From assembly GCA_016188625.1 (NCBI GenBank), contig JACPHL010000140.1, positions 1,526 to 6,679 of the forward strand: a DNA stretch of 5,154 bases, in the 5' to 3' direction. This document shows positions 2,026-4,982 of the stretch, in pieces. The stretch is from Candidatus Rokuibacteriota bacterium. GTDB taxonomy: Bacteria; Methylomirabilota; Methylomirabilia; Rokubacteriales; JACPHL01. Position numbers and translations under genes: made by a program. Within the stretch, counting starts at the first letter, position 1. Every line of letters begins with the position of its first letter. A model generated the notes under the pieces. The model was not told where the DNA came from. It saw only the letters and a list, made by a program, of their open reading frames with translations, and ran no database searches.

Positions 2026-2271
2026 ATGAAGGCCTACGTCCTGATCGAGACCAGCGCGGGGAAGACCAAGGGCGTCAAGAAGGCCCTGGGCAAGGTCAAG
2101 CCGGGGAAGTGCAAGATCGACTCCCTGGACGCGGTGACCGGGCCGTACGACTACATCGCGGTGGTGGAGGGGCCGAGCCTGGACGACATCGGCCAGCTCG
2201 TGACCGAGGGGATCGGGACCATCGACGGGGTCACGCGGACCACCACCTGCCTCGCGGTCGCCATCGGTTAA
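2026..2271 (+). CDS. Stand-alone Lrp/AsnC ligand-binding (RAM) domain protein
   Basis: An 81-residue protein made only of the RAM (regulation of amino acid metabolism) domain found at the C-terminus of Lrp/AsnC regulators. Visible hallmarks are the opening strand MKAYVLIETSAGK (1-13), the turn TGPYDYIAVVEG (38-49), and the final strand GVTRTTTCLAVAIG (68-81). There is no helix-turn-helix, and the complete length and good ribosome binding site show that it is a natural stand-alone form and not a truncation. By family, such proteins oligomerise through alpha-beta-sandwich dimers and may bind amino acids or other small effectors, or join full-length Lrp proteins. A specific ligand cannot be read from the sequence. 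It has its own promoter and is followed directly by a strong hairpin, so it is a single-gene unit. Confidence 0.9.
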   Translation: MKAYVLIETSAGKTKGVKKALGKVKPGKCKIDSLDAVTGPYDYIAVVEGPSLDDIGQLVTEGIGTIDGVTRTTTCLAVAIG

Positions 2272-2275
2272 CTAC

Positions 2276-2303
2276 TTGGAGGGGGGCGCTGCCCCCCTAC
2301 CAA
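2276..2303 (+). terminator. Strong GC hairpin after the RAM-domain gene
   Basis: It starts 4 nt after the stop codon. TTGG, A and GGGGGG-C (2276-2287) pair with G-CCCCCC, T and CCAA (2291-2303), with one bulged A and a GCT loop, giving about 12 base pairs. There is no T-tract, so it is not a textbook intrinsic terminator. It may be a hairpin-only terminator or a barrier that protects the 3' end. The genes converge here, so it could serve both strands. Confidence 0.6.
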
Positions 2304-2304
2304 A

Positions 2305-2387
2305 CCTCCCCCCAAGGTTGCGCGGGCAAAGCCCGCGCTCGGAGCGACCCATCCGTCCCCGGAGTCGAGGGGCAAGAGCGTGGCACC
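2305..2387. repeat. Imperfect direct repeat, copy A, with perfect stem-loop
   Basis: Aligns without gaps to copy B, 93 bp downstream, at roughly 78% identity by eye. It starts with CCTCCCCCC and holds a perfect stem GCGCGGGC / GCCCGCGC (2320-2327 and 2331-2338) with loop AAA, then a shared CTCGGAGCG segment and a shared CCATCCGTCCC-type segment. It contains no gene. It resembles a REP-like dispersed intergenic element, which is inference. Confidence 0.7.
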
Positions 2388-2397
2388 CCGTCCGAAG

Positions 2398-2480
2398 CCT
2401 CCCCCCGGGGTTGCGCCGGCGGAGCCGGCGCTCGGAGCGGACCATCCGTCCCTAGGGCTGAGGGTCAAGGGCGCGGCCGC
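2398..2480. repeat. Imperfect direct repeat, copy B, with perfect stem-loop
   Basis: Second copy of the repeat. Its stem is GCGCCGGC / GCCGGCGC (2413-2420 and 2424-2431) with loop GGA. Compared with copy A, one stem position has changed G to C and its partner has changed C to G, so pairing is kept. The rest follows copy A with scattered substitutions. Confidence 0.7.
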
Positions 2481-2565
2481 TTCGGCGCTACTCGGAGCAC
2501 CCCACCGCCTGCGGCCCGGGGGACCCCCAGGGGGGAGGCGTCGGCCCCGAGCGGAACCCTTCTCT
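2481..2565. other. GC-rich intergenic tail, no gene seen
   Basis: Between the repeats and the stop of the selenoprotein gene lies GC-rich DNA with runs of C and G (about 2518-2536) able to form small hairpins. They may aid termination of the minus-strand gene, but loops would be very short and no T-tract follows. Nothing else is supported. Confidence 0.4.
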
Positions 2566-2982
2566 TCACCGCCCGGCGATCACCACCTCGGAGGTGAGGG
2601 TGCGGTGGACCGGGCACTTGAGGGCGATCTCTCGGATCCGGGTCTCCTGCTCCGCGCTCAGCTCGCCCTCGAGGAGGAGCGCGAGCTCGATCCGGTCCAC
2701 CTTCCCCTCCCGGGTCTCGCACTCCGCGCACTCCTCGGCGTGGATCTTCTCGTGGCGGAGGCGGACCTCCACCCGATCGAGGCGCCACCCCTTCCGTCTT
2801 GCGTACAGCAAGACCGTCATTGAGGTTCAGGCCCCCAGGGAGGCCAGGAGCAGCTCGTAGGGGCCCGGGCCCGTGTCGTCGCCGCCGGCCTCCTTCGGCT
2901 CGTCCACGACCAGCCGGTGCGGCCCCATCCTGACTTCGTGCTGCAGGTTCCTCACGTAGGTCACGGTCACGTCCCTGGCCAT
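2566..2982 (-). CDS. OsmC-family selenoprotein (in-frame TGA read as Sec52)
   Basis: OsmC/Ohr proteins are cytoplasmic dimeric thiol peroxidases that reduce organic hydroperoxides with a peroxidatic and a resolving cysteine. The frame from ATG 2982 gives 138 residues, the usual family length: a beta-rich N-terminus (VTVTYVRNLQHEV), GPGPYELLLASLGA (38-51), TGA at codon 52, then TSMTVLLYARRKGW (53-66), RLRHEKIHAEECAECE (74-89) with a CxxC at 85/88, and KCPVHRTLTSE (122-132) with the second cysteine at 123. The family has GAC-TSM here, so TGA replaces exactly the peroxidatic cysteine. A hairpin fitting a bacterial SECIS lies 12 nt downstream. AAAGGAGG sits 8 nt before the ATG. The true stop is also TGA (2568-2566). 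Alternatives are a nonsense-mutated pseudogene or sequencing error, made unlikely by the exact position, hairpin and intact flanks. The substrate and redox partner are unknown. Confidence 0.88.
2796..2814 (-). promoter_or_regulatory. Bacterial SECIS (bSECIS) stem-loop
   Basis: On the coding strand GTCTTGC (2814-2808), loop TGTAC (2807-2803) and GCAAGAC (2802-2796) form a perfect 7-bp stem. The stem starts 12 nt and the loop 19 nt after the TGA, within the range known for bacterial SECIS elements. The loop has G in its second position followed by U, like the GU that SelB recognises in the E. coli fdhF element (from memory). No bulged U is seen in the stem. The element lies inside the coding region and encodes Val57 to Arg62. 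Confidence 0.8.
2827..2829 (-). other. Selenocysteine codon TGA (Sec52)
   Basis: The minus-strand reading is GGG GCC TGA ACC TCA ATG, giving Gly-Ala-Sec-Thr-Ser-Met. The next in-frame stop is only at 2568. By homology the position corresponds to the reactive cysteine of OsmC proteins. Confidence 0.85.
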
Positions 2983-2990
2983 GCCAGGTT

Positions 2991-2998
2991 CCTCCTTT
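2991..2998 (-). promoter_or_regulatory. Shine-Dalgarno of the selenoprotein gene
   Basis: AAAGGAGG on the minus strand, 8 nt before the ATG at 2982-2980. It shows that translation starts upstream of the TGA; the internal ATG at 2820 has no such site. Confidence 0.88.
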
Positions 2999-3006
2999 CC
3001 GGGGGC

Positions 3007-3034
3007 TCGACGCCCCGTCGGGCTATGGTAAGAT
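3007..3034 (+). promoter_or_regulatory. Probable promoter of the epimerase-dehydrogenase operon
   Basis: TCGACG (3007-3012, 4/6 to the -35) and TAAGAT (3029-3034, 4/6 to the -10) are 16 nt apart. Transcription would start near 3041, just ahead of a GAGGG ribosome binding site (3043-3047) placed 6 nt before ATG 3054. The -35 overlaps a GGGGC / GCCCC inverted repeat (3002-3006 and 3012-3016). Confidence 0.5.
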
Positions 3035-3053
3035 GCCCGGTCGAGGGAAATCC

Positions 3054-4031
3054 ATGGAGTGCTTGATCCTGGGCGGGAGCGAGTTCATCAGCCTCCACGT
3101 GGTGCGCGAGCTCCTCCGGCGCGGACATCGGGTCACCGTCCTGAACCGCGGGAGCCGCAACCAGCGCCTCCCGGCCGGCGTGGAGGTCCTCCTGGCCGAC
3201 CGGAAGGAGCACGCCGCCCTCCGCGCCGGGCTGGCGGGCCTGGCGTTCGACGACGTCTTCGACATCGCCTACGCCCCCACAACCGCCGAGGACGTCCGGG
3301 CGGCGCTGGAGGCCCTCGACGGCCGGGTCGGCCACTACCTCTTCTGCTCCTCCACCCGGGTCTACGACCACACCGCGCCCCTCCCCTTCACCGAGACGAC
3401 CCCGCGCAGCCTCTACTGGGGGGAGTACGCCCGCCACAAGCTCGAGGCCGAGGACGTCCTCCTCGAGCGCCACCGGGCCGGGGGCCTGCCCGTCACCCTG
3501 GTGCGCCCGACCCACGTCCTGGGCCCGTACAACACCCGCGACAACGAGACCTTCTTCTTCGACCGGATCCTCCGCGGCCGGCCGGTCCTCGTCCCGGGGG
3601 ACGGCGGATGGCTCCGCCAGTTCGGGCACGCCGAGGACCTGGCCCACGCCTTCGCCGAGATGGCGGGCAATCCCAGGGCGTCCGGCCAGGCCTACAATAT
3701 CACCGGCGAGGAGTGCGTCACCCAGGCCGGGTTCGTGGAGCTGATCGCCCACGTCATGGGGAAGCCGGTCGAGCTGGTCCACTTCGATCCCAAGCTCCTC
3801 GAGGGGTTCGAGAAGCCCGGCCGCGTCTTCGGCCAGAACCTCGTCTACCCGGCCCACATCTTCTACAGCACCGCCAAGGCCAGGCTCGAGCTGGGCCTCC
3901 ACCCGCGCTACACCCTGGAGGCCGGCCTCCGGCAGACCTACGAGTGGTACCTGGCCGAGGGGCTCGACCGCCGCCCCGTGGAGTTCGCCTTCGAGGATCA
4001 GCTCCTGGCCCGGCTCGGCCGGGGGCGTTGA
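3054..4031 (+). CDS. NAD(P)-dependent epimerase/dehydratase-like SDR
   Basis: A 325-residue extended/atypical short-chain dehydrogenase-reductase with an N-terminal Rossmann fold. The dinucleotide site is the variant LILGGSEFIS (4-13), in place of the classic GxxGxxG, followed by HRVTVLNRGS. FCSSTRVYD (about 97-105) supplies the Ser/Thr of the active site and YARHK (125-129) the catalytic YxxxK pair; then LVRPTHVLGPYN and YNITGEE, typical of sugar-nucleotide epimerase-like and CSP41-like proteins. The substrate cannot be told from the sequence; a nucleotide sugar is a reasonable guess, but many relatives have unknown roles. ATG 3054 is preferred over ATG 3033 since it has GAGGG 6 nt upstream and puts the GG motif near the N-terminus as usual, while ATG 3033 overlaps the proposed -10. 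It is followed after 3 nt by the dehydrogenase gene. Confidence 0.87.
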   Translation: MECLILGGSEFISLHVVRELLRRGHRVTVLNRGSRNQRLPAGVEVLLADRKEHAALRAGLAGLAFDDVFDIAYAPTTAEDVRAALEALDGRVGHYLFCSSTRVYDHTAPLPFTETTPRSLYWGEYARHKLEAEDVLLERHRAGGLPVTLVRPTHVLGPYNTRDNETFFFDRILRGRPVLVPGDGGWLRQFGHAEDLAHAFAEMAGNPRASGQAYNITGEECVTQAGFVELIAHVMGKPVELVHFDPKLLEGFEKPGRVFGQNLVYPAHIFYSTAKARLELGLHPRYTLEAGLRQTYEWYLAEGLDRRPVEFAFEDQLLARLGRGR

Positions 4032-4034
4032 CCC

Positions 4035-4982
4035 ATGCCGCGGGGCCCCGTCTCCGTCCTCCTCTACCATCCCGACGCCGCCGCCGACTACGCCCGGCTG
4101 GTCCGCGCCCCCCGAGACCGCATCCGCCTTCACGTCGCCTCGACCCGCGAGGAGGCGGAACTCCACCTAGCCGAGGCCGAGGTCCTCTACACCTGGGGGT
4201 TCCCCGGCGAGCTCCTCCCCCGCGCGAAGCGCCTCCGCTGGGTCCAGATCATGGGGGCGGGCGTGGACCGCTTCCTCACCGCGCCGCTGCCGCCTGGCGT
4301 CAAGCTGACGCGGGCCCCCGGCGTCTTCGGACCCTGGATGGCCCAATACGCCCTCGGCTGGCTCCTCTGGGTCACCCAGCGGATGGAGGCGGTCCGCCAG
4401 GCCCAGCAGGCCCGCCGCTGGGCCCCGTTCAACGCCGACCGCCTCCACGGACGGACCCTCGGGATCCTCGGGGCGGGCTCCATCGGGCGGGCCATCGCCC
4501 GCGCGGCCAGGGCCTTCGGGATGCGCGTGACCGGGGTGACCCGGAGCGGCCGGCGCGTCGCCGGCGTGGACCGGGTCTACGGGCGGGGGGCCCTCCGGGC
4601 GTTCCTCCGGGAGGCCGACTGGGTGGTCGTCGTCCTGCCGCTGACTCCCGAGACGCGGGGGATCATCGGGGAGCCCGAGCTCCGGGCGATGAAGCCGAGC
4701 GCCTGGCTCGTCAACATCGGGCGCGGCGCCCTCGTCGAGGAGGCGGCGCTGATCCGAGCGCTCCAGGAGCGGTGGATCGCGGGGGCCATCCTCGACGTCT
4801 TCCCCAAGGAGCCGCTCCCGCCCGAGCACCCCCTCTGGGCCCTCCCCAACGTCGTCGTCACCCCCCACATCGCCGGCCCCAGCACCCCGGAGGAGATCGC
4901 GCCGATCTTCAACGCCAACCTCCGGCGCTACCTGGCCGACCGCCGGCTCCTCGGCCTCGTGGACCGGCGCCGCGGCTACTGA
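4035..4982 (+). CDS. D-2-hydroxyacid dehydrogenase (GhrA-like glyoxylate/hydroxypyruvate reductase type)
   Basis: A complete 315-residue NAD(P)H-dependent dehydrogenase of the D-isomer-specific 2-hydroxyacid family, interconverting 2-oxo acids and D-2-hydroxy acids in the cytoplasm. The N-terminal catalytic domain contains WVQIMGAGVD (69-78). The nucleotide-binding domain has LGILGAGSIGR (142-152) with GxGxxG. The catalytic triad is visible: Arg230 in NIGRGALVEE, Glu259 in DVFPKEPLP and His278 in TPHIAGPS. Residues after the second beta strand (VTRSGRR, 168-174) are basic, which hints at NADPH preference; this is inference. The ATG follows the SDR stop by 3 nt with only a G-run as possible ribosome binding site, so translational coupling is likely. 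Whether the two enzymes act on related substrates is not shown. The exact substrate, such as glyoxylate or hydroxypyruvate, is unproven. Confidence 0.9.
   Translation: MPRGPVSVLLYHPDAAADYARLVRAPRDRIRLHVASTREEAELHLAEAEVLYTWGFPGELLPRAKRLRWVQIMGAGVDRFLTAPLPPGVKLTRAPGVFGPWMAQYALGWLLWVTQRMEAVRQAQQARRWAPFNADRLHGRTLGILGAGSIGRAIARAARAFGMRVTGVTRSGRRVAGVDRVYGRGALRAFLREADWVVVVLPLTPETRGIIGEPELRAMKPSAWLVNIGRGALVEEAALIRALQERWIAGAILDVFPKEPLPPEHPLWALPNVVVTPHIAGPSTPEEIAPIFNANLRRYLADRRLLGLVDRRRGY

What the first reader, a model, noticed from the sequence alone, without database searches (positions are those of the whole stretch)
2566..2982. OsmC-like selenoprotein hidden behind an in-frame TGA
The frame from 2982 has OsmC hallmarks on both sides of one TGA, and the TGA occupies exactly the peroxidatic cysteine position (GPGPYELLLASLGA, TGA, TSMT), with the second family cysteine kept at 123. 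Sec for Cys at a catalytic redox site is the classic selenoprotein pattern. Sec-containing OsmC-like proteins have, as I recall, been reported in bacterial or metagenomic selenoproteome surveys, so the class may not be wholly new, but this member would be missed by standard annotation. Sec52 with Cys123 (and possibly Cys85/Cys88) suggests a selenenylsulfide peroxidase.
Basis: partly seen in the sequence, partly recalled or inferred. Interest (0 to 1): 0.92.

Follow-up and report, generated by a model that had tools for sequence, protein, structure and literature searches.

The report
Selenium-containing OsmC-like redox protein gene
A small redox-protein gene in a Rokubacteria-like bacterium uses the stop codon UGA in its middle to insert the selenium amino acid selenocysteine at its active site; the case is very well supported by sequence, but proteins of this kind were already reported in 2005.

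Summary
The finding holds. On the minus strand, 2982-2566 encodes a complete 138-residue OsmC-family protein interrupted once, by TGA at 2829-2827, exactly where homologues have the reactive Cys. Twenty-seven distinct genes from other genomes also have TGA at this codon; 81 homologues have TGC or TGT there. A textbook bacterial SECIS hairpin (stem 2814-2808/2802-2796, loop UGUAC, 19 nt after UGA) follows; it covaries across relatives and here is built from codons almost absent from neighbouring genes. The same genome has tRNA-Sec(UCA), selA and selB together on one contig, plus selD, itself a TGA gene. The protein folds as OsmC in a confident model, with U52 in the central helix and an invariant partner Cys123. 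Most likely it is a thiol-dependent oxidoreductase working through a U52-C123 selenenylsulfide. Cys85/Cys88 are dispensable (10 of 28 Sec members lack them). The Arg/Glu pair of Ohr peroxidases is not conserved, so hydroperoxide reduction is plausible but unproven. Sec-OsmC proteins are a known class (Sargasso Sea, 2005; NCBIfam NF041052), although this one scores below that model's cut-off. It is a new, well-supported member of a known kind.

The parts
2566..2982 (-). osmC-like selenoprotein gene, 138 residues including Sec52; ATG at 2982, terminal TGA 2568-2566
2827..2829 (-). in-frame TGA read as selenocysteine (U52), at the Cys position of the family
   Evidence: 28 distinct TGA genes and 81 TGC/TGT genes at this codon
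2796..2814 (-). bacterial SECIS hairpin: GUCUUGC (2814-2808), loop UGUAC (2807-2803), GCAAGAC (2802-2796); 19 nt between UGA and loop
   Evidence: meets the published bSECIS constraints quoted
2614..2616 (-). codon of Cys123, invariant second redox cysteine (CPVH motif)
2719..2730 (-). codons of Cys85-Ala-Glu-Cys88, a CxxC pair kept in 18 of 28 Sec members
2991..2997 (-). AAGGAGG, Shine-Dalgarno-like site 8 nt before the ATG
   Evidence: read from the sequence

Best explanation
The gene encodes a stand-alone OsmC-fold selenoprotein. During translation SelB carrying Sec-tRNA(UCA) binds the hairpin just after the UGA and inserts selenocysteine at residue 52 (inferred from the parts present). U52 sits in the long central helix of the OsmC fold and is the nucleophile. 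It most likely reacts with a hydroperoxide or disulfide-type substrate, is resolved by the invariant Cys123 to a selenenylsulfide, and is then reduced by a cellular dithiol. The gene, UGA, SECIS and machinery are shown by sequence; Sec insertion itself, the U52-C123 bond, substrate and reductant are inferred. The Cys85/Cys88 pair is not essential to the cycle.
For: One internal stop in an otherwise full-length OsmC frame. TGA at this codon in 28 distinct genes (relatives down to about 45% identity, also outside the order), Cys in 81 others. Amino-acid change is held below synonymous change both before and after the TGA (dN/dS 0.16-0.79 and 0.29-0.48), so the part after the TGA is translated. 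SECIS: 7-bp stem, 5-nt loop with G in second place followed by U, 19 nt from UGA, -10.4 kcal/mol, 0 of 200 shuffles as stable, within the bSECIS limits given in PMC13188914. The loop letters UGUA are invariant and the stem covaries: 19 cells changed on both sides, against a mean of 5.1 in shuffles, 0 of 500 as high. Stem codons TTG, GCA and AGA occur 1/85, 0/83 and 0/75 times in three neighbouring genes, and none of 5000 synonymous recodings keeps all 7 pairs. RNA after the codon folds better in Sec than Cys genes (-12.6 versus -7.9 kcal/mol). Machinery: tRNA-Sec with anticodon TCA and 75.7 bits, selA 600 bits, selB 381 bits on one contig, selD 396 bits. AlphaFold2 model pLDDT 92; top matches are all OsmC/Ohr structures, Z 13.0 to 2opl. 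Position 52, T56, C123 and P124 are invariant in 44 aligned proteins.
Against: No protein-level proof of Sec. Folding of a longer stretch (50-60 nt) is not unusual against shuffles (z about -1). Three Sec members (L048-L050) need a slightly shifted stem. The catalytic Arg and Glu of Ohr (PMC5962072) are not conserved, and the YhfA branch is stated not to be a thiol peroxidase (PMC4069020), so peroxidase action may be wrong.
Confidence: 0.9

Rival explanations
1. Pseudogene: the TGA is a disabling mutation in a dead osmC gene.
For: A standard annotation would show a fragment, as the ORF listing does with an 84-aa piece at 2566-2820.
Against: TGA at the same codon in 27 distinct genes of other genomes, no other frame-breaking change, purifying selection after the TGA, conserved SECIS and a complete Sec machinery.
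Confidence: 0.01
2. Sequencing or assembly error, TGC read as TGA.
For: The genome is a fragmented draft (344 contigs, 84% complete); reads were not available.
Against: The same TGA occurs in 27 other distinct assembled genes, with a SECIS that would serve no purpose behind a TGC codon; genes of Cys relatives fold less stably there.
Confidence: 0.005
3. Another reassignment: the organism reads TGA as Trp or Cys generally.
For: One TGA is readable in frame.
Against: The gene itself and many relatives end in TGA, tRNA-Sec with anticodon TCA is present, and the readable TGAs found sit at redox sites (OsmC U52, SelD GAG-U-ACK).
Confidence: 0.005
4. It is a selenoprotein but not a hydroperoxide peroxidase: a YhfA-like redox or thiol-transfer protein that acts on disulfides, persulfides or electrophiles.
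For: Ohr Arg19 has no conserved counterpart; at the Glu51 position (10 residues before the reactive residue) there is Tyr in 23 of 28 Sec and 16 of 16 Cys members; the BLAST score to E. coli YhfA (E 1e-5) is a little better than to OsmC (E 5e-4); about half of the Cys relatives have long upstream frames, and the four scanned are C-terminal domains of alpha/beta-hydrolases.
Against: U52 and C123 occupy the peroxidatic and resolving positions; Sec at such sites suits peroxide chemistry; a D/E one residue further on (E43) is common and could stand in for Glu51.
Confidence: 0.45

Closest known systems
Sec-containing OsmC-like proteins of the Sargasso Sea and GOS surveys (PMC1088965, PMC2398784)
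   Same: OsmC family (COG1765 / PF02566), Sec at the redox motif, bacterial SECIS right after the UGA
   Different: Their redox motif is tabulated as UxxT; here it reads U-TSM-T (UxxxT).
NCBIfam NF041052 OsmC_like_Se, 'OsmC-related (seleno)protein'
   Same: All 44 aligned members match it, the window protein over residues 4-135 of 138
   Different: The window protein scores 60.5 bits, below the cut-off of 95: a related subfamily rather than a member by NCBI's rule
OsmC domain of alpha/beta-hydrolase-OsmC fusions (Cys relatives such as L053 and L058; PDB 9wo1 is the nearest solved chain, 400 residues)
   Same: Closest Cys-type sequence relatives and best PDB sequence hit (E 2.1e-27); same DEP..GG, GACTSMT, CxxC and CPVHRTL motifs
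   Different: The window gene is a stand-alone OsmC domain with Sec
Ohr / OsmC peroxiredoxins (XfOhr, E. coli OsmC)
   Same: Fold (Z about 10) and the pair of redox positions
   Different: Catalytic Arg and Glu not conserved; about 20% identity
E. coli YhfA (1ml8)
   Same: Fold (Z 11.9) and N-terminal motifs
   Different: Sec instead of Cys, extra CxxC loop

Membership tests
Bacterial selenoprotein | In-frame UGA aligned with Cys of homologues | tested here: met
Bacterial selenoprotein | bSECIS: 3-9 nt loop, 4-16 bp stem, G in first two loop positions, 16-37 nt from UGA, MFE at most -7.5 kcal/mol | tested here: met
   5 nt, 7 bp, G second, 19 nt, -10.4 kcal/mol (model quoted)
Bacterial selenoprotein | selA, selB, tRNA-Sec and selD in the genome | tested here: met
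Bacterial selenoprotein | Sec present in the protein | not testable with these tools
   needs 75Se labelling or mass spectrometry
OsmC superfamily (PF02566) | Profile match above gathering score | tested here: met
   63.5 bits against 27.5
OsmC superfamily (PF02566) | OsmC/Ohr fold with two redox residues, one in the central helix and one about 65-70 residues later | tested here: met
   model pLDDT 92, Z 13.0 to 2opl; U52 in helix 41-64, C123 invariant
Ohr-type hydroperoxide peroxidase | Conserved catalytic Arg and Glu (XfOhr Arg19, Glu51) | tested here: not met
   no conserved Arg in the N-terminal part; Tyr at the Glu51 position, with a D/E one residue later in most members; assigned by sequence alignment, geometry not measured
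Ohr-type hydroperoxide peroxidase | Thiol-dependent peroxidase activity | not testable with these tools
   biochemical assay needed
NCBIfam NF041052 OsmC_like_Se | Score at or above 95 bits | tested here: not met
   60.5 bits

The most novel reading that the evidence does not exclude
Having Sec at position 52 freed this OsmC subfamily from its CxxC loop. All 16 Cys-type relatives aligned keep Cys85/Cys88, while 10 of 28 Sec-type members, in three separate groups of the tree, have lost them and keep only U52 and C123. Selenium would thus have made a second cysteine pair (relay, metal or redox loop) unnecessary, giving a natural series for testing what the loop does.
Probability: 0.3. Interest if true: 0.5.

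Novelty: new member of a known kind. Interest (0 to 1): 0.38.

Why it matters
The gene would be cut in two by standard annotation, in a lineage near one recently reported to hold a very large selenoproteome (PMC13188914 cites a Methylomirabilota genome with 63 predicted selenoproteins). The Sec/Cys pairs and the natural loss of CxxC in Sec members give clean material for asking what Sec does in the OsmC fold; I found no experimental study of a Sec form in the papers searched.

Tried and rejected
Rfam scan of 2500-3100 gave no family above its gathering score; that says little about a SECIS. Whole-stretch RNA folding of 50-60 nt was not exceptional; the core hairpin and its covariation carry the case. 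RNAalifold on all 28 sequences predicts only four of the stem pairs, because three distant members have a shifted stem. The other tRNA-Sec-model hits in the genome that I checked are tRNA-Ser. A single origin of the Sec form could be neither shown nor excluded: the tree needs four changes, but well-supported branches force only one. A hydrolase fusion was considered; the window gene is stand-alone, with a divergent epimerase gene upstream. Two selenoprotein papers by Haft were not in the library and Deng et al. 2026 was not read, so I could not check whether this very gene is already listed in a survey.

Full report
Observation. The frame from 2982 down to 2566 was translated with TGA as Sec: it is a complete OsmC-like protein with one internal TGA at codon 52 (bases 2829-2827) and a terminal TGA. 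Pfam OsmC matches residues 34-135 at E=2.6e-17; the piece after the TGA alone gives only 3.7e-7. A Shine-Dalgarno-like AAGGAGG lies 8 nt before the ATG. The plain ORF list shows only an 84-residue fragment at 2566-2820.

Relatives. Among 119 related genomes the best matches of the same order and class carry TGA at the same codon; I extracted 28 distinct TGA genes, counting the window's. The closest (in G002; the same match appears in a Candidatus Rokuibacteriota contig, L051) is about 84% identical. A separate scan of about 85,000 species genomes returned 80 loci, 79 of them Cys forms, mainly from Proteobacteria, Actinobacteria, Verrucomicrobia, Acidobacteria and Myxococcota, at about 52-64% identity. 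Of all distinct loci, 28 have TGA and 81 TGC or TGT; there is no other codon. dN/dS is below 1 on both sides of the TGA in seven pairs: 0.16-0.79 before it, 0.29-0.48 after it.

SECIS. Starting 12 nt after the UGA lies GUCUUGC-UGUAC-GCAAGAC. The core folds at -10.4 kcal/mol, and none of 200 shuffles is as stable. It meets all four published bSECIS constraints (quoted from PMC13188914). Across 28 Sec genes the loop letters UGUA never vary, while stem pairs change on both sides: 19 such cells against 5.1 expected, covariation score 0.321 against 0.125, 0 of 500 shuffles as high, and all slid registers score at most 0.100. Cells count sequences, not independent events. In the window the stem needs TTG, GCA and AGA, codons used 1 in 85, 0 in 83 and 0 in 75 times in three neighbouring genes; none of 5000 synonymous recodings keeps the seven pairs. 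Sec genes fold more stably after this codon than Cys genes, partly perhaps a base-composition effect that I did not separate further.

Machinery. The genome (2.6 Mb, 344 contigs, 84% complete) has tRNA-Sec with anticodon TCA at C273:1401-1498, then selA (600 bits) and selB (381 bits) on the same contig. selD is on C179 (396 bits) and is itself interrupted by TGA at its redox position, GAG-U-ACKL. The Sec reading therefore needs nothing that the genome lacks.

The protein. An AlphaFold2 model from 44 window and locus sequences has mean pLDDT 92; all the best structural matches are OsmC/Ohr proteins, led by 2opl (Z 13.0), with 1lql and 1ml8 (YhfA) close behind. U52 lies in the central helix 41-64. 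D27, E28, P29, G34, P39, P41, position 52, T56, C123 and P124 are among the invariant positions. C123 is the expected resolving residue. C85/C88 are present in all 16 aligned Cys forms but missing in 10 of 28 Sec forms, so they cannot be essential to the Sec cycle. The Arg and Glu that activate the Ohr cysteine (PMC5962072) have no conserved counterparts: position 18 is R in only 9 of 28 Sec forms, and Tyr stands at the Glu51 place, with D or E one residue later in most. The family resembles YhfA slightly more than OsmC. The YhfA branch is described as an exception to thiol-peroxidase activity (PMC4069020). I therefore rate redox action through U52-C123 as likely and hydroperoxide as the physiological substrate as no better than even.

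Context. About half of the Cys relatives have a long open frame upstream; the four scanned are C-terminal domains of alpha/beta-hydrolase fusions. PDB 9wo1, the best solved sequence relative, matches in its C-terminal part. The Sec gene of the window is stand-alone. In six relatives it is next to the same divergent NAD-epimerase and D-2-hydroxyacid dehydrogenase genes as here, and in three also near the Lrp/AsnC-domain gene. The link is unexplained.

Known or new. OsmC-like selenoproteins were described in the Sargasso Sea set in 2005 and again in GOS in 2008, with motif UxxT, are listed in recent reviews, and have an NCBIfam model, NF041052, under whose cut-off this protein falls. A Methylomirabilota genome with 63 predicted selenoproteins has been reported; that Rokubacteria belong to that phylum in GTDB is my own knowledge. 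The finding is therefore real and correctly read, and is a new member, probably a separate subfamily, of a known kind.

Noticed in passing
L020:1357-1824 (+), G000 contig C256: A second OsmC-family gene in the same genome also has TGA at the reactive Cys position (GG-U-MTGT), with the CP partner Cys and a 7-bp hairpin after it; it is only about 20% identical to the window protein. Its hairpin is not exceptional against shuffles.
   Followed up: partly
L015 (contig C179), selD: SelD of this genome is itself a TGA gene (GAG-U-ACKL) with a stable hairpin after the TGA.
   Followed up: partly
window 3033-4982 and L026, L028, L033, L043, L044, L045: The Sec-osmC gene is divergent from an NAD-epimerase plus D-2-hydroxyacid dehydrogenase pair, and this arrangement recurs in six related genomes; the functional link is unknown.
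   Followed up: partly
window 2026-2271: Short gene with only the Lrp/AsnC ligand-binding domain (no DNA-binding part), convergent with osmC; also found near osmC in L028, L043 and L045.
   Followed up: partly
window 2268-2560: Intergenic stretch in which a GC-rich motif (about cctcccccc..ggttgcgc..g..gcgctcggagcg.ccatccgtcc) appears twice by eye; perhaps an intergenic repeat.
   Followed up: no
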